DNA of 64,000 nucleotides, taken from positions 372,001 to 436,000 of the forward strand of contig NZ_JAFIMU010000002.1 of assembly GCF_017302985.1 (NCBI RefSeq). Reading direction: 5' to 3'. Of the stretch, positions 25,663 to 34,427 are shown one piece after another. The notes below the pieces were generated by a model that saw only the letters and a program-made list of their open reading frames with translations, was not told the DNA's origin and ran no database searches. Numbering within the stretch: the first letter of the stretch is position 1; each line of letters begins with the position of its first letter. This stretch comes from Corallococcus macrosporus. Its GTDB lineage: Bacteria; Myxococcota; Myxococcia; Myxococcales; Myxococcaceae. The position numbers and the translations under genes were made by a program.

Positions 25663-25675
25663 CAGGGCAAAAAAA

Positions 25676-26070
<395 letters not shown>

Positions 26071-26240: not shown

Positions 26241-26690
26241 ATGGAAGCGGTCATCTTCACGGGCATCCAGGGGACGGGGAAGAGCAGCTTCTACCGGGAG
26301 CGCTTCTTCACCACGCACGTCCGCCTGAGCCTGGACATGCTGAAGACGCGGCACCGGGAGAAGGTGCTGCTGCGCGCGTGCCTGGAGGCGAAGCAGCCCT
26401 TCGTGGTGGACAACACCAACCCCACGGTGGCGGAGCGCTCCCGCTACATCGCCGCCGCGAAGGGGTTCGGCTTCCGCGTGGTGGGGCTCTACTTCCAGTC
26501 GAAGGTCGCGGACGCGCTGCTTCGGAATGATCAGCGCCCGGTGGAGCAGCGCGTGCCGCTGGTGGGCGTGCTCGGCACCTACAAGCGCTTGCAGGTCCCC
26601 AGCCCGGAAGAGGGCTTCGACGCACTGTTCTTCGTCCGGCTGTCGCAGGACGGTTTCACCGTGGAGGAGTGGCAACGTGAAGTTCGATGA
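26241..26690 (+). CDS. P-loop kinase/ATPase, polynucleotide-kinase-like (AAA_33 type)
   Basis: 149 residues. Walker A is GIQGTGKSSFYRERF. A LSLDMLKTRH segment matches the substrate/phosphate-binding region of small P-loop kinases, VVDNTNPTVAERSRYI the Walker-B-like strand with the DNTN motif, and a lid-like Arg stretch (RNDQRPVEQRVP) follows. These features are those of 5'-OH polynucleotide kinase-like domains such as the Pnkp kinase, though zeta-toxin-like kinases look similar. ATG 26241 follows GGAGGGGAGGGA. The next gene starts at GTG 26677, inside this frame (14-bp overlap), so the two are translated together. Role inferred from context: preparing an RNA end for the Thg1-like enzyme. Confidence 0.78.
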   Translation: MEAVIFTGIQGTGKSSFYRERFFTTHVRLSLDMLKTRHREKVLLRACLEAKQPFVVDNTNPTVAERSRYIAAAKGFGFRVVGLYFQSKVADALLRNDQRPVEQRVPLVGVLGTYKRLQVPSPEEGFDALFFVRLSQDGFTVEEWQREVR

Positions 26691-27444
26691 GCTCGACCAG
26701 AAGATGCGCGTGTTCGAGACCGCGCATGACCTGTGCGTGCTGCCCGGGGTGTTCATGGTGGCGCGCATCGATGGACGCGGCTTCACGCGGCTGACGAAGG
26801 AGGTGCACGCCTTCGAGAGCCCCTTCGACGTGCGCTTCCGGGACCTGATGGTCGCGACGACCGGGCACCTGATGGACTGCGGCTTCCGGGTCCTCTACGG
26901 CTACACGCAGAGCGATGAAATCTCGCTGCTGTTCCACCCGGACGAGGACACCTTCGGGCGCAAGACGCGCAAGCTCAACTCGCTCCTCGCGGGAGAGGCG
27001 AGTGCGAAGTTCTCGCTGCTGTTGGGGGACCTGGCCGCGTTCGACTGCCGCATCTGCGAGCTGCCGAATGCGGGGCTCGTGCGCGACTACTTCCGCTGGC
27101 GCAGCGAGGACGCGCACCGCAACGCGCTGAACGCGCACTGCTACTGGAGCCTGCGCCGCGAGGGAAAGGGCGTCGCGGAGGCGACGAACACGCTCATGCG
27201 CCTGTCGGTGGCGCAGAAGAACGAGCTGCTCTTCCAGCGGGGCGTGAACTTCAACGACCTGCCGAACTGGCAGAAGCGCGGGACGGGGCTCTACCGGGAG
27301 ACGTACGCGAAGGAGGCGCTCAACCCGAGGACGGGAGAGACGGTCCTCGCCGAGCGCCGCCGCCTCAAGGTGGACTCCGAGCTGCCGATGAAGGACGCGT
27401 ACGACGCGTTCATCCTGGCGTTGCTGGAGGGTGTGGAGCGATGA
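26677..27444 (+). CDS. Thg1-like protein (3'-5' nucleotide polymerase)
   Basis: 255 residues with the Thg1 palm motifs. RIDGRGFTRL has Asp32 (first metal ligand), and TQSDEISLLF has Asp80-Glu81, with the 48-residue spacing expected from Thg1 (29 to 77 in the human protein). A DAHRNALNAHCYW helix corresponds to the conserved HxNN-type segment. Thg1 proteins add nucleotides in the 3'-to-5' direction; the eukaryotic enzyme adds G-1 to tRNA-His, and bacterial Thg1-like proteins are known to repair 5'-truncated tRNAs. GTG 26677 is preferred to a frame start at 26527. It overlaps the downstream gene by 4 bp (ATGA). Confidence 0.9.
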   Translation: MKFDELDQKMRVFETAHDLCVLPGVFMVARIDGRGFTRLTKEVHAFESPFDVRFRDLMVATTGHLMDCGFRVLYGYTQSDEISLLFHPDEDTFGRKTRKLNSLLAGEASAKFSLLLGDLAAFDCRICELPNAGLVRDYFRWRSEDAHRNALNAHCYWSLRREGKGVAEATNTLMRLSVAQKNELLFQRGVNFNDLPNWQKRGTGLYRETYAKEALNPRTGETVLAERRRLKVDSELPMKDAYDAFILALLEGVER

Positions 27445-27908
27445 GCGTGGACCTGGACCGTTTGATGCGTCAGTACCGGGAGTGCGCCCGGCACGTGTGG
27501 AACACGTACTTCCAGCCATTGCAGGACGGGTGGCACGAGTTCATCGGCGTGGAGCAGGCGCTCCTCTCGGGCCTTGTCCTCGAACAGGCGGGCATCGACT
27601 CCACGCGGAAGTCTCTCGAGTACATCCAGGGCCTTCGCGTCCGCCCGGTCATCCCTCCCATGGGCTACCTGGACGTGTTCCTCGCTCCGGCGCGGGTTCC
27701 GGAGGATCGCGTGACGCGCTGGCGCCAAGGCGTCCTGAAGCCCGGGGAAGTGGACCTTCGGTTCCTCTGCTTCTTCGACTGGGCCGGGATGAACGACCCG
27801 CAGGACTATCGCTACGTGAGGGCACGGGTCCTGGCGACCGGACAGCCAGAGTTGGAAGGCTGTGACGTACTCCTGGAGTTCCAGGCCGTCTCCTTCGAGC
27901 GGGTGTAA
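27441..27908 (+). CDS. Unknown protein in the kinase/Thg1-like cassette
   Basis: 155 residues, overlapping the Thg1-like gene by 4 bp (ATGA). Content is alpha/beta: LMRQYRECARHVWNTYFQPL at the start, GVEQALLSGLVLEQAG, PVIPPMGYLDVFLAPARVPEDR and LRFLCFFDWAGMNDPQDYRYVRARV. There is no signal peptide, no transmembrane segment and no motif I can name. The overlap with the polymerase gene suggests a shared pathway, perhaps a regulator or substrate-binding partner. Codon use is like the neighbours. Confidence 0.75.
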   Translation: MSVDLDRLMRQYRECARHVWNTYFQPLQDGWHEFIGVEQALLSGLVLEQAGIDSTRKSLEYIQGLRVRPVIPPMGYLDVFLAPARVPEDRVTRWRQGVLKPGEVDLRFLCFFDWAGMNDPQDYRYVRARVLATGQPELEGCDVLLEFQAVSFERV

Positions 27909-28006
27909 GGCTTTACGGGCAATGCCACTCCTTGACCGTGAGGCGCTGTCCTACCCGGGGGATGGGGGATTGCGCGGCTTCGCCCGGGTGCCGCAGGATT
28001 CGCGCT

Positions 28007-28037
28007 CGCGCCGCCGGGTGCCCTGCGGCACGGCGCG
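28007..28037 (+). terminator. Possible hairpin between the Thg1-like cassette and the next gene
   Basis: CGCGCC (28007-28012) can pair with GGCGCG (28032-28037) and GTGCC with GGCAC inside. No T-run is present, so this may be only local secondary structure. Confidence 0.3.
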
Positions 28038-28058
28038 ACGGTTTCGAGGGGGAAGCAC

Positions 28059-28559
28059 ATGGTCATCTTTGGTTCGAGGCTCTACGGCAAGGTCGATGCG
28101 GTTCCGGGCCTGGGCTACGTGGCGACGAAGTTCGGTCACATCAACTTCGTGCCACTCATCCCGCTGGAGGGCTGGCTCGTCGTCGCCGAGGAGGGCAACG
28201 GCTGGAGAGGGCAGGCCATTGGCATGAGCGGCAAGTCCGTGCTCGTCGCGTGGGCGCGCTTCTTGTTCATCGTCGTGGGGCTCGGCTCGCTCGCCTTCGG
28301 CTTCATCGGCAGCACGAGCCACGATTCGGGCGGCATCCTCCTGCCGGGCGTGCTCGCGCTGGCGTGCATTGGCGGGCTCATCGCTTCGTACACCTGGAAG
28401 TGGGTCACCCACGCGTCGCCGGAGCGCGCGCTGGAGATCGCCCGGGAGGCGGGAGTGGGCGAGGCGGGGCTGGAGCAGCTGCGCCGCATGTACCTGATGC
28501 CCGAGGCCGCCGCCGCCGTCGCCGCGCCCGCTCAGCCGTGGACTCCGCCGGAGTCCTAG
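28059..28559 (+). CDS. Small membrane protein of unknown function
   Basis: 166 residues. The N-terminal 55 residues are soluble (GSRLYGKVDAVPGLGYVATKFGHINFVPLIPLEGWLV). Two transmembrane helices lie near 68-88 (FLFIVVGLGSLAFGFIG) and 92-112 (ILLPGVLALACIGGLIASY). A cytoplasmic C-terminal helix follows. ATG follows GGGGGAAGCAC. It ends 32 bp before the Hsp70 gene and might be cotranscribed with it. No family recognised. Confidence 0.7.
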   Translation: MVIFGSRLYGKVDAVPGLGYVATKFGHINFVPLIPLEGWLVVAEEGNGWRGQAIGMSGKSVLVAWARFLFIVVGLGSLAFGFIGSTSHDSGGILLPGVLALACIGGLIASYTWKWVTHASPERALEIAREAGVGEAGLEQLRRMYLMPEAAAAVAAPAQPWTPPES

Positions 28560-28591
28560 TCTTCGCCGAAAGGCTTTTGGGTTCTCCTCGC

Positions 28592-30355
28592 ATGAGTCAT
28601 GTCGTTGGCATCGATCTGGGCACCACGCATTCCCTGGTGGCCGCGCTCGACGGCGCGGGCCGTCCCAACCTGCTGACCAACCGGTTGGGGCAGCGGCTCA
28701 CGCCCTCGGTGGTGGGGCTGGACGCGGAGGGGCGGCTCCACGTGGGCGAGTCCGCGCGAGCGCAGTTGCTCGTGCATCCGGAGCGCACCATCGCGGAGGT
28801 GAAGCGGCGCATGGGCCGCGACCTGCCGGTGACGCTGGGTGACCGCCGCTACAGTCCCACGGAGATCTCCGCGCTCATCCTGCGCGCGCTGCGTGAGGAC
28901 GCGGAGCGGGCGCTGGGCGGCGCGGTGACGGAGGCCGTCGTCACGGTGCCTGCGTACTTCAGCGATGCGCAGCGCCAGGCGACGAAGGATGCCGGTGAGC
29001 TGGCGGGGCTCAAGGTGGAGCGGTTGCTCAACGAGCCCACCGCCGCGGCGCTCGCGTACGGCGTGAACCACCTGGACGCCGAGCAGTACGTGCTCGTGTA
29101 CGACCTGGGCGGCGGCACGTTCGACGTGTCGGTGCTGGAGATGTTCCAGGGCGTGCTGGACGTGAAGGCCTCCGCGGGCAACAACCAGCTCGGAGGCAGC
29201 GACTTCGATCAGGCGCTGGCCGCGTGGCTGGGCGCGGAGTTCGAGCGCACCCACGGCGTGTCGCTGACCGGGAACCTGGCGGCACAGGTGCGGCTCAAGG
29301 CGGCGGCGGAGGCCGCGAAGATCGCGCTCACGGCTGTGGATGCCACGCCCGTCATCGTGCCGTTCCTCGCGCCGGGGCGGGGAGGCACGCCCGCGTCGCT
29401 GGAGGTGGAGGTGACGCGCGCGCGGTTCGAGGCGTTGATCACGGACCTGGTGCGCTCCACGCTCGAGCCGATGGAGAGCGCGCTGCGCGACGCGAAGCTG
29501 TCGAAGAAGTCCATCGCGGAGGTGGTGCTGGTGGGCGGCAGCTCGCGCGTGCCGTTGGTGCGCCGGCTGGTCGCGGAATACTTCGGGCGCGAGCCCCGCG
29601 AAGGCGTGCACCCCGACGAAGCGGTGGCGCTGGGCGCCGCGCTGCAGGCGGGGCTGAAGACGGGCGCGGTGAGCGCCGCGCACGGCATCATGATCACGGA
29701 CGTGTGTCCGTTCACGCTGGGCGTGGAGGTGCAGGCGACGGTGGGGCGCGAGCGGGTGGGGGGCGTCTTCTCTCCGCTGATCCCGCGCAATACGACGGTG
29801 CCGGTGTCGCGCACGGAGACCTTCGCGACGACGGCGGACGGTCAGCGCGCGGTGGAGATCCGCGTGTTCCAGGGCGAGGCGCGGCTGGTGAAGGACAACC
29901 TGCTGCTGGACGCGTACACGGTGGAGGGAGTGCCGCCAGGCCGTGCAGGGGCGGAGAAGGTCGCGGTCACGTTCACGTACGACATCAACGGCATCCTCGA
30001 CGTCACGACGCGAGTGGTCTCCACGGGCAAGGAGGCCACGCTCGTGGTGGACAAGCGCTCGCAGCGCCTGGGGCCGGAGCAGCGGCTGGAGGCGAAGGAG
30101 CGGCTGGCGCGCGAATGGGGAGCGGCACCAGGAGCACCCGTGCCCGTGGCGGCGCCGCAACCTGTGTCTCCGGAGGCCGATGCGGATGCCCTGCTGACCG
30201 CCGCGACCGAGCGGATCGCGACCGCGCCCGCGGGAGTGCGTCCCCGGCTGGAGTCGCTGTGCAACGCCCTGCGTGAGGCCCGAGCCAAGGGAGACCGCGC
30301 CGCCGCGGCCCGCCTGGATGCCGAGCTGACCGACCTGCTGTTCGACCTGGGCTGA
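28592..30355 (+). CDS. Hsp70-family chaperone (DnaK/HscC-like)
   Basis: 587 residues, shorter than DnaK (about 640). The ATPase domain (about 1-370) is complete: GIDLGTTHSLVAAL, PAYFSDAQRQATKDAGELAGL, NEPTAAALAYG, VYDLGGGTFDVSVL and VVLVGGSSRVPLV. The substrate-binding beta-domain is present (DVCPFTLGVEVQ, NTTVPVSRTETFAT). The C-terminal helical lid is short and the tail ends DLLFDLG with no EEVD-type end. This suggests a specialised Hsp70 of the HscC sort, not the housekeeping DnaK. It precedes a TPR-Lon protease and a J-like protein, its likely partners. The start is ATG 28592 just before SHVVGIDLG. Confidence 0.93.
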   Translation: MSHVVGIDLGTTHSLVAALDGAGRPNLLTNRLGQRLTPSVVGLDAEGRLHVGESARAQLLVHPERTIAEVKRRMGRDLPVTLGDRRYSPTEISALILRALREDAERALGGAVTEAVVTVPAYFSDAQRQATKDAGELAGLKVERLLNEPTAAALAYGVNHLDAEQYVLVYDLGGGTFDVSVLEMFQGVLDVKASAGNNQLGGSDFDQALAAWLGAEFERTHGVSLTGNLAAQVRLKAAAEAAKIALTAVDATPVIVPFLAPGRGGTPASLEVEVTRARFEALITDLVRSTLEPMESALRDAKLSKKSIAEVVLVGGSSRVPLVRRLVAEYFGREPREGVHPDEAVALGAALQAGLKTGAVSAAHGIMITDVCPFTLGVEVQATVGRERVGGVFSPLIPRNTTVPVSRTETFATTADGQRAVEIRVFQGEARLVKDNLLLDAYTVEGVPPGRAGAEKVAVTFTYDINGILDVTTRVVSTGKEATLVVDKRSQRLGPEQRLEAKERLAREWGAAPGAPVPVAAPQPVSPEADADALLTAATERIATAPAGVRPRLESLCNALREARAKGDRAAAARLDAELTDLLFDLG

Positions 30356-30363
30356 GCGCGCGG

Positions 30364-30707
30364 ATGCCGCCGACCGAACTCCCGTGCCTCACCGGTTCGT
30401 TGATCCTGGCCGCGATACCGCTTCAGGAGCACGCAGGTGCTTGAGCAAACTCAAGCGCACGGTGGAGCCACGCCCGGCCGGAACGTCAGGGGCGATGGGC
30501 CTGTGTGCGATGCAGATTCAGGAGCCGGCATGCTCCTGACTGAGTTGAGCTTCGCGATGGTGCCGCGTCCGGCCGGAATGCCGGGGGCGATGAGCCTGCA
30601 TGTGCTGCTGCCTCAGGAGCACGCATGCTCCTGACCGAACTCAAGCGCGCGGTGGTGCTGCGTCCGGCGGAGCCCTCGGCGCGTCTGGCATTGGCCGAGG
30701 CGCTCTT
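30364..30707 (+). repeat. Degenerate 95-bp tandem repeats covering the start of the TPR-Lon gene
   Basis: Three copies begin with TCAGGAGC at 30423, 30518 and 30613. Spacing is exactly 95 bp, and the third copy contains the ribosome-binding site and first codons of the TPR-Lon gene. Copy 2 reads ATGCTCCTGACTGAGTTGAG and copy 3 ATGCTCCTGACCGAACTCAA. A partial, weaker match (GAACTC 13 bp after an ATG at 30364) may be a fourth copy out of register. Copies 1 and 2 match along their whole length; copy 3 matches for about 57 bp and then diverges into the gene. Because 95 is not a multiple of three, each copy has a different frame. Confidence 0.8.
30530..30634 (+). CDS. Possible upstream peptide ORF overlapping the TPR-Lon start
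   Basis: A 34-residue frame from the ATG of repeat copy 2, preceded by AGGAG. Its TGA (30632-30634) lies inside the first codons of the TPR-Lon gene (ATG 30625), giving a 10-bp overlap. The first residues MLLTEL repeat those of the protease. Could be a translational coupling peptide or simply an echo of the duplication. Confidence 0.3.
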   Translation: MLLTELSFAMVPRPAGMPGAMSLHVLLPQEHACS

Positions 30708-32145
30708 CCAGGAGCGCGACTTTCGCGGCGCCGCGGAGCATGCGCGCAAGGCACTGGACCTGGGCGGTGGCGGTCCCGCGCGTCGCCTCCTGTGCGGAGC
30801 CTGGGCTCGTGATGGCAAGCGGGCCGACGCGCTGAAGATGCTGGAGACGTCCGTTCGTGAAGCTCCGCGCGATGCATCCCTGCGCGCTGAGCTGATCACG
30901 TTCCTGGCGGAGGAACGGCCGGACGACGCGCTCGTGCATGCGCTCGAGGCCGCCGAAGCCGCACCCGGTGAACTGGAGGCCTGGCGCGCCATCATCCGGC
31001 TGTGTGAACGCACGAACCGTCCCTCCGAAGCCATGCCCGCGCTCAGGCGTGCGCGGCTGCTCGCGCCGGAGGATCCGCGCCTCGCGGAGTCAGTGCTCAG
31101 TGCACGTTCCGCGCTCGGACTTCCGGCCACCACCGCCATGCTGGATGCGCCTCCCCTGGAGCAGGCCGCGTTTGCGCTCAAGCTGCCCACGGCGCGCGCC
31201 GCGCTCTCCCAGGCAAAGCTCGAGGCCGCCGTGGATGCACTCTCCCGAGGTGCGCTCGCGGAGGCGAAGCGGCAGCTCGTGGTCGCGCCCGCTTCGACCC
31301 GGACCGGCGCCGCCGCGGCCCTGCTTCGCGCGGAGTTGCTGTGGCTGGAGGGACGTCCCGCCGCTCAGGTGGAAGAGGCCCGTCGCGCCGTGGTGGACAT
31401 GCCCGGTGCACCCGGGGCCGCCGCGCTGCGCCTGGGTGATCACCTGCTCGAGGCCGGCGCGCTGGATGAAGCGCGAGAGCTCTATGCCATCGCGGCGGCG
31501 AACGGAGAGTCCCTGGCGGCCGCGGGCCGCGAGGCCGAAGTCGCCGAACGTCGCCGGCTGCTCGCGCGCGACCTGCCCGCGGTGGGCCGCGTGGGTGTGC
31601 TCGGCTGGCATCCGGGGGGCGGGCATGTCTCTCCGCTGGAGGCGGTCGCGGTGCCAGGGCGCGGCGTGCTGCGGTGCAGTGGCCACGTGGGCCCCGAGGG
31701 CCAGGAGGCCGCGGACGTGGCCTTCAGCGTGGTGCGTGCCCGCGCGCCCGCGCTGAGCCTGGGCACGCTCACGACCCGCTACGACCTTCACCTGCACTAC
31801 ACGGACACCGAGGTGGGCAAGGACGGCCTCTCCTCGGGGCTCGCGCTCTCGCTCGCGGGCCTCTCCGCGTACACGCAGCGGCCTCTGCCCGCGCGGCTGG
31901 CCGTGACGGGCGAGGTGACGTTGAACGGCGAGGTGCGGCGGGTGGGCGGCGTGCACGAGAAGCTGGTGGCCGCGTACCTCGAAGGCATGCGCGTGGTCGT
32001 GCACCCGCGCCGCAACCTGGATGACGTGGCGGCGCTGCCGCCCGAGGTGGCCGGGCGCCTGCGCCTGATCGCCGTGGACAGCTTGGATGAGGCGTGGCGG
32101 CTCGTGAACGCGGCCGTGAACACGCCAGGACTGGAGCGAAGGTGA
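30625..32145 (+). CDS. TPR protein with a C-terminal Lon-type (S16) protease domain
   Basis: 506 residues. Residues 1-330 are helical and Ala/Leu/Arg-rich with TPR-like repeats (LRPAEPSARLALAEALFQERDFRGAAEHARKAL). The C-terminal 165 residues are a Lon proteolytic domain: HLHYTDTEVGKDGLSSGLALSLAGLSA holds catalytic Ser403 (KDGLSSG), and VGGVHEKLVAA holds Lys446. The Ser-Lys spacing of 43 equals that of E. coli Lon (679/722). There is no AAA+ module and no ATP motif, so unfolding or delivery must come from elsewhere; the adjacent Hsp70 and J-like protein are candidates. The stop overlaps the J-protein start. The ATG follows AGGAG. Confidence 0.85.
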   Translation: MLLTELKRAVVLRPAEPSARLALAEALFQERDFRGAAEHARKALDLGGGGPARRLLCGAWARDGKRADALKMLETSVREAPRDASLRAELITFLAEERPDDALVHALEAAEAAPGELEAWRAIIRLCERTNRPSEAMPALRRARLLAPEDPRLAESVLSARSALGLPATTAMLDAPPLEQAAFALKLPTARAALSQAKLEAAVDALSRGALAEAKRQLVVAPASTRTGAAAALLRAELLWLEGRPAAQVEEARRAVVDMPGAPGAAALRLGDHLLEAGALDEARELYAIAAANGESLAAAGREAEVAERRRLLARDLPAVGRVGVLGWHPGGGHVSPLEAVAVPGRGVLRCSGHVGPEGQEAADVAFSVVRARAPALSLGTLTTRYDLHLHYTDTEVGKDGLSSGLALSLAGLSAYTQRPLPARLAVTGEVTLNGEVRRVGGVHEKLVAAYLEGMRVVVHPRRNLDDVAALPPEVAGRLRLIAVDSLDEAWRLVNAAVNTPGLERR

Positions 32146-34427
32146 ACAACGAGCCCCGCCAGAACCCCTACGAGGTGCTGGGCGTCGAGAAGGACGCGGA
32201 AGCCCGCGCCATCAAGAAGGCCTACTTCGAGCGCGTCCGGCAGAACCCGCCGGAGACGCACCCGGAGGAGTTCCGGCGCCTGCGCGAGGCCTACGAGCTG
32301 CTCTCCGACCCGGAAGCACGTCAGGCCTTCGACGCCAGCACCGCCGCGCAGGCCGACGGCCCGGAGGCCGCGGGCAACGCGCACCTCAAGGAAGCCATCA
32401 ACCTGTTCGAAGCCGGTGACAAGGAAGGGGGCCGCAAGGTCCTCACCACGCTCCTCACCGAACAGCCGGACTTCCACGACGCGCGCCTCCTGCTGGGCCG
32501 CCACTTCCTCTTCGAGGGCGAGTTCAAGCAGGCGCTGGCGGAGTTCGACGCGCTGCTCGAGCGCGCACCCGAGCACTGGCAGGGGCACCTGCAGCGGGGC
32601 TGGGTGCTGGTCCGCCAGGAGCGGCTGAAGGAGGCCGCGGACGCCTTCTGGCGCGCGGGCAAGCACGGCCCCACGGAGGTGGGCCCACGCGTGGCGTTGG
32701 CCGACTGCCTGGAGGCGATGGGGCAGGTGGCCGACGCGATTGAAGTGCTCACGAAGGCGCAGGAGCTGCCCGGCGTGTCGCGGATGGACGTGCTCGCCCT
32801 CAAGGTGCGGCGCATCGCGACGATGCTGGAGTACGGCCAGGACGCCGACGTCGAGACGGACCTGAAGCAGCTCGACGCGGAGCTACCGGAGAGCGCGGAC
32901 CCCGAGCTGCGCCGGTGGACCGGAGGCCAGCTCTCCTCCGCCGCCGCGCACCTCTTCGCCCAGCAGAAGTCCAAGGCCGCGAACCGGCTGCTCGAGTTCG
33001 GCCGCCGCTTCAACCCGGAGAGCGCCACCGAGGTCGCGTACCCGACCTGCGTCAGCCTGGACGTGGACGCCCTGCCGGCCGTCACGCGCGAGTGGCTGCA
33101 CTCGGAGGCGGAGCGGATTGGCGGGTGGCGCGTCGTGGCGACCTGGGTGATGCCGGCCCTCTTCACGCTGGCGCTCGCCACCGGCACCTGCTTTCTGATG
33201 GCCTCCGTCTTCTTCGGGACCTCCGAGCGCGGCGTCCTGGGTTGGATCGGGTGCGCGCTGTTCGCGGCCATCGCGTTTGGCATCACCTGGGCCCAGGCCC
33301 GTCAGCTCAGGCGGGTGATGGCGAGCCCCTATGGCCGCTTCAACACCATCCACCCCCTGCACCTCATCGAGGTGGCCATCGACCGCATCACCGTGTGGCC
33401 GCTCGTGCACCTGCAGGACATGCAGCTGGTGAATCACCAGAACAACGGCGTCTATCAGCACACGGCGATCGAGATGCGCTTCAACGGCAAGCGCATGACC
33501 CTGACCGTGCGAGGCAAGGACAAGGCGGAGGAACTGGCCAACGAGTTGATTGCCCGCCGCCGCCGGGTGCTGGAGCTGCTCGGCCGGGGCATGCTGGACG
33601 CGGAGAGCGGCGTGGAGCACCTGCCCCCGGCGCTGCTGGCGCGCGCGGACAAGGCGGGCCACGTGCGAGCACAAGCGCCACGTTCGCCCTGGCCCGGCGT
33701 GTTCGCCGCCGCGGGCGTGGGCGTGGTGCTGGTGGGCGCCGCCGTGTGGCCGCAGCAGCGGATCGCGGCGGAGCACTCCTGGACGCGCGTCGCCTTCCAA
33801 GGGGACCTGAGCTCCCTGCTCGAGTACCTGCGCGAGCAGCCCGACCCCCGCTTCGCCCCGGAGATCCAGGCCCGCGTGGACGCGGAGCTGGGCAGGGCGC
33901 ATGCACTGCTCGAAGCGCGGTTGGATCCAGGCAGCCCCGCGGCCCCGTCCCGCGCGTTCTTCACGGGCTTGCTGAAGGGCGTCTCGCGCACGCACAGCCG
34001 CCGTCTGTCCGTGACGTGGGAGGCGCCCAACGGCAAGCGGATGCCGCCAGGGGATGATCCGTCGGAGCTGCTCATTGGTGCGTGGCAACGGACCGTGAAT
34101 GAAGCGCTGGGGCAGGGCGTGCTGGTCGTGGATGGGGGACGGGGCTCGCGCCATGAGGGGCCCTCCCTGCTGACGCTTCGTGTGCGGGAGGACTTGCGTC
34201 CCGGCGCGGGAGGCACGTCGTCCCAGCGTGTCTGGTCGGTGGTCCAGGAGGGGCCTGGCGCGGACGCGGCGGTCCCGCCGTTGGAGCTCGTGGCGGACGC
34301 GGCGGATCCGCGCGCCTCGGAGGTCCTCTTCCATGCGTGGGTGGACCGTTGGCACCTGCCTGGTGCGGGCGATCGCCGCCCGTTGTTGCTGACTGCTTCG
34401 ACGCTTGGCCCGGAGGCCCAGCCGTGA
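32142..34427 (+). CDS. J-like domain protein without HPD, with TPR repeats and membrane helices
   Basis: 761 residues. An N-terminal J-like domain (about 8-66, NPYEVLGVEKDAEARAIKKAYFERVRQNPPETHPEEF) carries NPP where the Hsp70-activating HPD should be. TPR-like repeats follow to about 320. Two transmembrane helices lie near 330-355 and 365-382, a PH-like or beta segment covers 400-460, and another transmembrane helix lies near 510-530. A C-terminal soluble domain ends in KWxxPG-like repeats. J-domains with a YPPE-type segment at this place are known in bacteria and may act as non-stimulating J-like adaptors; function is inferred. The GTG start overlaps the protease stop (GTGA). Confidence 0.82.
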   Translation: MNNEPRQNPYEVLGVEKDAEARAIKKAYFERVRQNPPETHPEEFRRLREAYELLSDPEARQAFDASTAAQADGPEAAGNAHLKEAINLFEAGDKEGGRKVLTTLLTEQPDFHDARLLLGRHFLFEGEFKQALAEFDALLERAPEHWQGHLQRGWVLVRQERLKEAADAFWRAGKHGPTEVGPRVALADCLEAMGQVADAIEVLTKAQELPGVSRMDVLALKVRRIATMLEYGQDADVETDLKQLDAELPESADPELRRWTGGQLSSAAAHLFAQQKSKAANRLLEFGRRFNPESATEVAYPTCVSLDVDALPAVTREWLHSEAERIGGWRVVATWVMPALFTLALATGTCFLMASVFFGTSERGVLGWIGCALFAAIAFGITWAQARQLRRVMASPYGRFNTIHPLHLIEVAIDRITVWPLVHLQDMQLVNHQNNGVYQHTAIEMRFNGKRMTLTVRGKDKAEELANELIARRRRVLELLGRGMLDAESGVEHLPPALLARADKAGHVRAQAPRSPWPGVFAAAGVGVVLVGAAVWPQQRIAAEHSWTRVAFQGDLSSLLEYLREQPDPRFAPEIQARVDAELGRAHALLEARLDPGSPAAPSRAFFTGLLKGVSRTHSRRLSVTWEAPNGKRMPPGDDPSELLIGAWQRTVNEALGQGVLVVDGGRGSRHEGPSLLTLRVREDLRPGAGGTSSQRVWSVVQEGPGADAAVPPLELVADAADPRASEVLFHAWVDRWHLPGAGDRRPLLLTASTLGPEAQP

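What the first reader, a model, noticed from the sequence alone, without database searches (positions are those of the whole stretch)
26241..27908. P-loop kinase, Thg1-like polymerase and unknown protein as an overlapping RNA-repair cassette
The kinase frame overlaps the Thg1-like gene by 14 bp, and the latter overlaps the unknown gene by 4 bp. A polynucleotide-kinase-like enzyme could supply 5'-phosphate ends and a 3'-5' polymerase could rebuild 5' ends of tRNAs. rnpB, which makes tRNA 5' ends, lies divergently 170 bp away. Bacterial Thg1-like proteins repairing 5'-truncated tRNA are known; a linked kinase and a third factor are less so.
Basis: partly seen in the sequence, partly recalled or inferred. 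Interest (0 to 1): 0.72.

Follow-up and report, generated by a model that had tools for sequence, protein, structure and literature searches.

The report
Known RNA 5'-end repair gene pair
Two overlapping genes encode a kinase and a backward-growing RNA polymerase that probably rebuild damaged RNA 5' ends, a pairing predicted in 2010; the third gene beside them looks like an unrelated passenger.

Summary
The frames, overlaps (14 and 4 bp) and divergent rnpB (173 bp) are real. The window is from a Corallococcus-like myxobacterium.

The kinase is PNK-like by sequence and predicted fold, nearest the mammalian PNKP kinase domain; zeta toxins score lower. The second gene is a Thg1-like 3'-5' polymerase (TLP).

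The kinase lies directly upstream of the TLP in 48 of 58 TLP loci of the phylum, and beside it in 24 of 80 loci of a cross-phylum scan. In two Nostoc loci and on a Deinococcus plasmid the pair neighbours Hen1, Pnkp or RlaP genes. This supports RNA repair.

That pairing and mechanism were published in 2010 (PMC2904730), so it is not new.

The third gene is no cassette member: intact after the TLP in 3 of 16 Corallococcus genomes, with 4.6-7 times its neighbours' synonymous divergence, and relatives elsewhere. rnpB adjacency was seen only in this genus. This genome encodes G-1 of tRNA-His, arguing against a tRNA-His role, and shows no Hen1 over cut-off.

The parts
26241..26690 (+). PNK-like P-loop kinase, 149 aa; Walker A GIQGTGKS at residue 8, aspartate at residue 32, DNTN at residues 57-60
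   Evidence: AAA_33 E 2.8e-12; PNK profile TIGR01663 E 1.5e-9, far below its full-length cut-off; mammalian PNKP kinase domain E 6e-9 by sequence, Z 18.7 by fold; motif positions
26677..27444 (+). Thg1-like 3'-5' polymerase (TLP), 255 aa; RIDGRGF and YTQSDE motifs
   Evidence: PF04446 E 1.6e-31 and PF14413 E 1.9e-16; best solved structure 5axk, a Thg1-like protein, E 1.1e-28; motifs
27441..27908 (+). unknown 155-aa protein; overlaps the TLP by 4 bp but is a genus-level passenger, not a conserved member
   Evidence: no family over its cut-off; intact after the TLP in 3 of 16 congeners; dS 0.83-0.92 against 0.13-0.18 for the two neighbours between the same genomes
25674..26067 (-). rnpB, class A RNase P RNA; neighbour only
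   Evidence: RF00010, 305.7 bits; beside the pair only in this genus

Best explanation
The kinase and the TLP are a two-enzyme RNA 5'-end repair pair. An RNA (most likely a tRNA) cut or trimmed at its 5' side, with a 5'-OH left behind, is phosphorylated by the kinase using NTP. The TLP then activates the 5'-phosphate and adds nucleotides 3'-to-5', templated by the opposite strand of the acceptor stem, until the end is restored. Shown here: family membership, predicted fold, conserved catalytic motifs, overlapping gene order across phyla, parallel divergence of the two genes, and RNA-repair neighbours in a few distant relatives. Inferred: the substrate, the order of the steps, and direct cooperation. 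The third gene is not part of the system.
For: Kinase: PNK-family profile and fold hits. TLP: Thg1 and Thg1C domains. Pair: 48 of 58 TLP loci in the phylum; 24 of 80 TLP loci in a cross-phylum scan (23 upstream, 1 downstream), or 21 of 75 after leaving out 5 contigs already in the phylum survey; overlapping genes on a Deinococcus plasmid and adjacent ones on an Embleya plasmid. Distance matrices of the two proteins correlate: r 0.83 over 62 pairs, r 0.65 over 16 scan loci, 0 of 2000 permutations as high in either. RNA-repair neighbours: Hen1-kinase-TLP-Pnkp in Nostoc L132, Hen1-kinase-TLP in L143, kinase-TLP followed by Hen1 and two RlaP in Deinococcus L160, RlaP and SIR2 in Chryseobacterium L138. 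The same pairing and mechanism were predicted in 2010 (PMC2904730, passages). TLP repair of 5'-truncated tRNA is reviewed in PMC6471195 (section 3).
Against: The pair is not obligate: two Corallococcus genomes keep a TLP without the kinase; five other TLP genomes have the kinase elsewhere in the genome; 17 genomes have a strong kinase and no TLP. In 56 of 80 scan loci no such kinase was found beside the TLP, though one of them (L099) holds only 99 bases upstream. Nothing that points to RNA repair was found beside the window pair, no Hen1 over cut-off in its genome, and only a Pnkp-like protein matching up to position 421 of 851. Hen1 was found in 3 and RlaP-like genes in 5 of the loci held. 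Correlated distances also arise from shared descent alone.
Confidence: 0.75

Rival explanations
1. The TLP serves tRNA-His maturation: it adds or restores G-1, and the kinase is a side activity.
For: The family name and the Thg1 domain. PMC6471195 reports single G addition by the M. xanthus TLP in vitro.
Against: The one tRNA-His gene found in this genome already encodes G-1 opposite C73, so the step would be redundant. The TLP was found in only 58 of 195 genomes of the phylum.
Confidence: 0.07
2. The TLP adenylylates 5' ends made by the kinase so that an RNA ligase can join them; polymerisation is secondary.
For: Offered in PMC2904730. Hen1 and Pnkp, the latter with a partial ligase domain, flank the pair in Nostoc L132.
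Against: No ligase was found beside the pair in the window. Hen1 was found in only 3 of the loci held, one of them the query's own. Known TLPs polymerise in vitro (PMC6471195).
Confidence: 0.12
3. All three genes form one repair cassette, with the 155-aa protein as an accessory factor.
For: A 4-bp overlap with the TLP and purifying selection. Traces of the gene after the TLP in other congeners suggest it is old at this site in the genus.
Against: Intact after the TLP in 3 of 16 congeners and in none of the 80 scan loci at E 1e-5. Relatives in other genomes lie in unrelated places. dS is 4.6-7 times that of the neighbours between the same genomes.
Confidence: 0.05
4. The P-loop protein is a toxin-type (zeta) or small-molecule kinase beside the TLP by chance.
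For: Zeta chains appear in the fold list (1gvn Z 14.7, 13% identity), as do PFKFB and gluconate kinase.
Against: PNKP ranks above them (Z 18.7, 28% identity). Sequence searches list PNK, PSTK and Pnkp, not zeta. Linkage to the TLP is conserved.
Confidence: 0.04

Closest known systems
Bacterial Thg1 plus PNK-family kinase gene pair (Anantharaman, Iyer and Aravind 2010, PMC2904730; abstract and passages read)
   Same: Same two families, a conserved bacterial neighbourhood, and the same proposed step (kinase supplies the 5'-phosphate). Myxococcus xanthus is in the paper's species abbreviation list.
   Different: The window adds a third, non-conserved gene. The MACRO and RNA ligase partners named in the paper were not found beside the window pair.
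Pnkp/Hen1 bacterial RNA repair system (PMC4411300, start of abstract in a search listing only)
   Same: Hen1, and in one case Pnkp, flank the kinase-TLP pair in two Nostoc loci, and Hen1 follows it on a Deinococcus plasmid. Both use a PNK-type kinase.
   Different: The window locus has neither; no Hen1 over cut-off in its genome; its kinase is a stand-alone 149-aa domain.
Mammalian PNKP kinase domain
   Same: Best sequence and fold match; Walker A and the DNTNP stretch align.
   Different: The window protein is the kinase domain alone; 28% identity.

Membership tests
Thg1-like proteins (TLP) | Thg1 catalytic and C-terminal domains | tested here: met
   PF04446 109.4 bits (cut-off 29.2) and PF14413 60.8 bits (cut-off 26.3)
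Thg1-like proteins (TLP) | metal-binding acidic residues (D21 and D69 of MaTLP in PMC6471195) | tested here: met
   residues 21 and 69 of chain 5axk align with the aspartates of RIDG and SDE of the window TLP (that 5axk is MaTLP is recalled); they are invariant in the 7-row A1
Thg1-like proteins (TLP) | templated 3'-5' addition to 5'-truncated tRNA | not testable with these tools
   needs an enzyme assay
PNK-family P-loop kinases | sequence profile | tested here: met
   AAA_33 47.6 bits (cut-off 27); an 18-row profile finds PNKP at E 2.8e-23; the full-length TIGR01663 and TIGR04075 cut-offs are not reached, as expected for a lone domain
PNK-family P-loop kinases | fold | tested here: met
   1yj5 Z 18.7, rmsd 1.6, 138 residues; model pLDDT 92.0. 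Two fungal chains titled only 'kinase' tie with it (Z 18.4, 18.0)
PNK-family P-loop kinases | phosphorylates 5'-OH ends of nucleic acid | not testable with these tools
   needs an enzyme assay
zeta-type toxin kinases | closest match to the zeta fold or zeta profile | tested here: inconclusive
   zeta chains at Z 14.7 and 13.6, below PNKP at 18.7; Pfam listed only AAA_33 at E up to 1
Pnkp/Hen1 RNA repair operon | hen1 and pnkp genes in the same locus | tested here: not met
   neither among six neighbouring ORFs scanned; no Hen1 over cut-off in the genome; Pnkp matches of the genome are on contig C7, the window is on C2
three-gene repair cassette | the three genes recur together | tested here: not met
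   3 of 16 congeners; none of the other 42 phylum TLP loci or 80 scan loci

The most novel reading that the evidence does not exclude
The kinase-TLP pair is a movable 5'-end module of the Pnkp/Hen1 RNA repair system: where a ribotoxin cut loses nucleotides from the 5' side, kinase and TLP refill the gap from the template strand before Pnkp ligates and Hen1 marks the 3' end, so repair does not need an exact break. The order Hen1-kinase-TLP-Pnkp in Nostoc L132 fits this. Stand-alone pairs such as the window's, whose genome shows no Hen1 over cut-off, would do the first half only.
Probability: 0.25. Interest if true: 0.6.

Novelty: already known. Interest (0 to 1): 0.25.

Why it matters
The natural substrates of bacterial TLPs are still open (PMC6471195, section 3). 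The kinase link is a testable clue that the damaged end carries a 5'-OH, and the Hen1/Pnkp neighbours in Nostoc and Deinococcus point to ribotoxin-type damage. The window itself adds one more example of a published pairing.

Tried and rejected
Third protein: Pfam and NCBIfam gave no family over its cut-off for it; among its 8 aligned relatives the Pfam hits up to E 0.1 were scattered (best 0.0037, one member). A viral contig scan with its alignment found no relative, and plasmids gave one Hymenobacter hit whose neighbours are all 'hypothetical protein'. The single-sequence fold was poor (pLDDT 44.1), so it was not searched.

A role for rnpB was rejected: rnpB lies upstream of the TLP in 16 of 16 Corallococcus loci (13; the other 3, about 1 kb away, in longer stretches) and blastn with the window's rnpB found it in none of the other 42 phylum TLP loci. 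Of those 42, one holds 102 bases upstream of the TLP, 14 about 1.0-1.5 kb and 27 over 3.6 kb. No positive control for rnpB of other genera was run.

Two tRNA-His patterns found nothing: the gene has CTGTG, not TTGTG, at the anticodon. The Rfam tRNA search led to it.

Co-occurrence count: the Fisher p-value there is not used, because genomes are related. Only 20 candidates per genome were scored, so a missing kinase is not proof of absence. G156 counts there as TLP-only, but it has a kinase fragment beside its TLP and was probably not among the 189 genomes. That the other 57 TLP genomes were all among those 189 was not checked.

Rows dropped: L001 (duplicate of L013), L016 (kinase without a P-loop) and L057 (kinase incomplete at its N-terminus). 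Of the 24 scan loci with a neighbouring kinase, 16 went into; L080 (split over two frames), L103 (downstream, cut), L105 and L125 (cut at the contig end), L096, L148 and L149 (contigs already in the phylum survey) and L111 (not carried over into the list) were left out. L016 and L057 are counted in the 48 of 58, so complete kinases number 46.

Phage TLPs (116 records) were not followed up; the phage search with the kinase gave no match.

Full report
What is there. A 149-aa P-loop kinase (26241-26690), a 255-aa Thg1-like protein (26677-27444) and a 155-aa unknown protein (27441-27908) run in one direction with 14- and 4-bp overlaps; rnpB lies divergently 173 bp upstream. The genus is Corallococcus by inference: the contig of congener locus L012 (G079:C59, 21141 bases) has the same length as that of C. 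interemptor L149, and both bear the TLP.

What the proteins are. The kinase hits AAA_33 and, far below its full-length cut-off, the PNK profile. Its best solved relative is the mammalian PNKP kinase domain by sequence (E 6e-9 alone, 2.8e-23 as an 18-row profile) and by predicted fold (pLDDT 92.0; Z 18.7, rmsd 1.6 over 138 residues). Two fungal chains titled only 'kinase' tie with it (18.4, 18.0); bacterial Pnkp kinase (17.7), PSTK (15.4), zeta toxin (14.7), T4 PNK (13.7) and PFKFB (13.7) follow. The TLP carries both Thg1 domains and the acidic motifs, and its best solved relative is 5axk, a Thg1-like protein. The third protein has no family over a cut-off.

Is the pair conserved? Of 195 Myxococcota genomes, 58 have a TLP. 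In 48 of these 58 loci the kinase is directly upstream on the same strand, from 41 bp overlap to 3 bp gap with starts chosen by script; two of the 48 kinases look degenerate (L016, L057). Of the 10 without, one is at a contig end (L046), five have the kinase elsewhere in the genome (G090, G091, G092, G151, G157), and four have no strong match (G069, G071, G080, G083). In 189 genomes 69 have a strong kinase match, 17 of them without a TLP. A cross-phylum scan kept the best 80 TLP loci of 561 (more existed); 24 have the kinase beside the TLP (23 upstream, 1 downstream), in Myxococcota, Bacteroidota, Nostoc, Hahella, Lentisphaerae and relatives, Kiritimatiellae and Lachnospiraceae. Five of the 80 are contigs already in the phylum survey (L079, L081, L096, L148, L149), three of them with the kinase. 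Among the 19 scan loci whose TLP is over 50% identical to the window's, 10 have the kinase. Plasmids of Deinococcus (4-bp overlap) and Embleya carry the pair too. The two proteins' tree distances correlate (r 0.83 over 62 pairs; 0.65 over 16 scan loci; 0 of 2000 permutations as high), which agrees with joint inheritance but does not prove interaction.

RNA-repair context. In Nostoc L132 the order is Hen1, kinase, TLP, Pnkp; in L143 it is Hen1, kinase, TLP (contig held to 88 bases past the TLP); on the Deinococcus plasmid L160 the pair is followed by a DUF705 protein, Hen1 and two RlaP proteins; Chryseobacterium L138 has RlaP, SIR2 and an ATP-grasp protein upstream of the pair; a Thiodictyon plasmid has TLP followed by RlaP, without the kinase. 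Gene calls in unannotated loci are by my own simple ORF chooser. These neighbours are rare in the loci held: Hen1 in 3, RlaP-like in 5, counting the query loci themselves, and many loci hold little flank. Beside the window pair the scanned ORFs are an M1 peptidase, an SRP-receptor-type GTPase, an Hsp70, a Lon-type protease with TPR, a DnaJ-TPR protein and one without a family. The genome has no Hen1 over cut-off and two Pnkp-profile matches, both partial and on another contig.

Third gene. It is intact behind the TLP in the window, G077 and G082, that is 3 of 16 Corallococcus genomes; short matches to its 3' end directly after the TLP remain in others (clear in L007 and L018, weaker in L008, L009, L011 and L026). 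In the phylum 8 of 189 genomes have a relative; the six copies outside those 3 lie in unrelated contexts. None of the 80 scan loci has one at E 1e-5. Between the same pairs of genomes its dS is 0.92 and 0.83, against 0.13-0.18 for kinase and TLP. It is best read as a replaceable passenger.

tRNA-His. The only tRNA-His gene that ARAGORN found in the loci covering the 51 tRNA matches (contig C8) has an encoded G before the acceptor stem and C73 (pairing read by eye). So this genome does not need a TLP for G-1.

Prior art. PMC2904730 (2010; [quoted passage not shown] PMC6471195 (2019; outline and section 3) reviews TLP repair of 5'-truncated tRNA and says the natural substrates are unresolved. 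The jumbo-phage paper PMC7824862 (passages) places Thg1 among RNA-repair enzymes. A search for Hen1 with Thg1 and Pnkp found nothing in the held library; a 2016 paper on RNA damage and repair (Burroughs and Aravind, recalled) was not held under the identifier tried and may describe those links, so no claim of novelty is made for them.

Verdict. The kinase-TLP pair is real, conserved and already known; the mechanism (kinase supplies a 5'-phosphate, TLP rebuilds the end) is well supported by context but untested here. The three-gene cassette and the rnpB link are not supported.

Noticed in passing
L132:3069-8141 and L143:3069-5756 (Nostoc); L160:4516-9775 (Deinococcus taeanensis plasmid): The kinase-TLP pair stands between Hen1 and Pnkp (L132), after Hen1 (L143), or before Hen1 and two RlaP proteins (L160); possibly an extended RNA repair operon.
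   Followed up: partly
G000:C7:2204336-2205547 (L180): 14 of 16 Corallococcus genomes carry a Pnkp-profile match that ends at model position 421-433 of 851 (kinase and phosphatase part, no ligase; two with an in-frame TGA); 6 of the 16 also have a match over the full-length cut-off.
   Followed up: no
L072 and L170 (G023:C38): The third protein's family also matches the C-terminal part of an Rhs-like open frame, E 1e-33 with the A4 profile; the frame contains a masked run.
   Followed up: no
G080 (L179) and G083 (L074): Two Corallococcus genomes lack the kinase between rnpB and the TLP but keep an open TLP frame; short matches to the kinase 3' end remain before the TLP in G080.
   Followed up: partly
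phage collection: 116 phage records encode a TLP (14 of the 20 listed are over 200 kb), while no phage record matched the stand-alone kinase.
   Followed up: no
window 27932-34427 +: Downstream lie an Hsp70 gene, a Lon-type protease domain with TPR and a DnaJ-TPR protein; ORF 28059-28559 before them has only a sub-cut-off Pfam hit.
   Followed up: no
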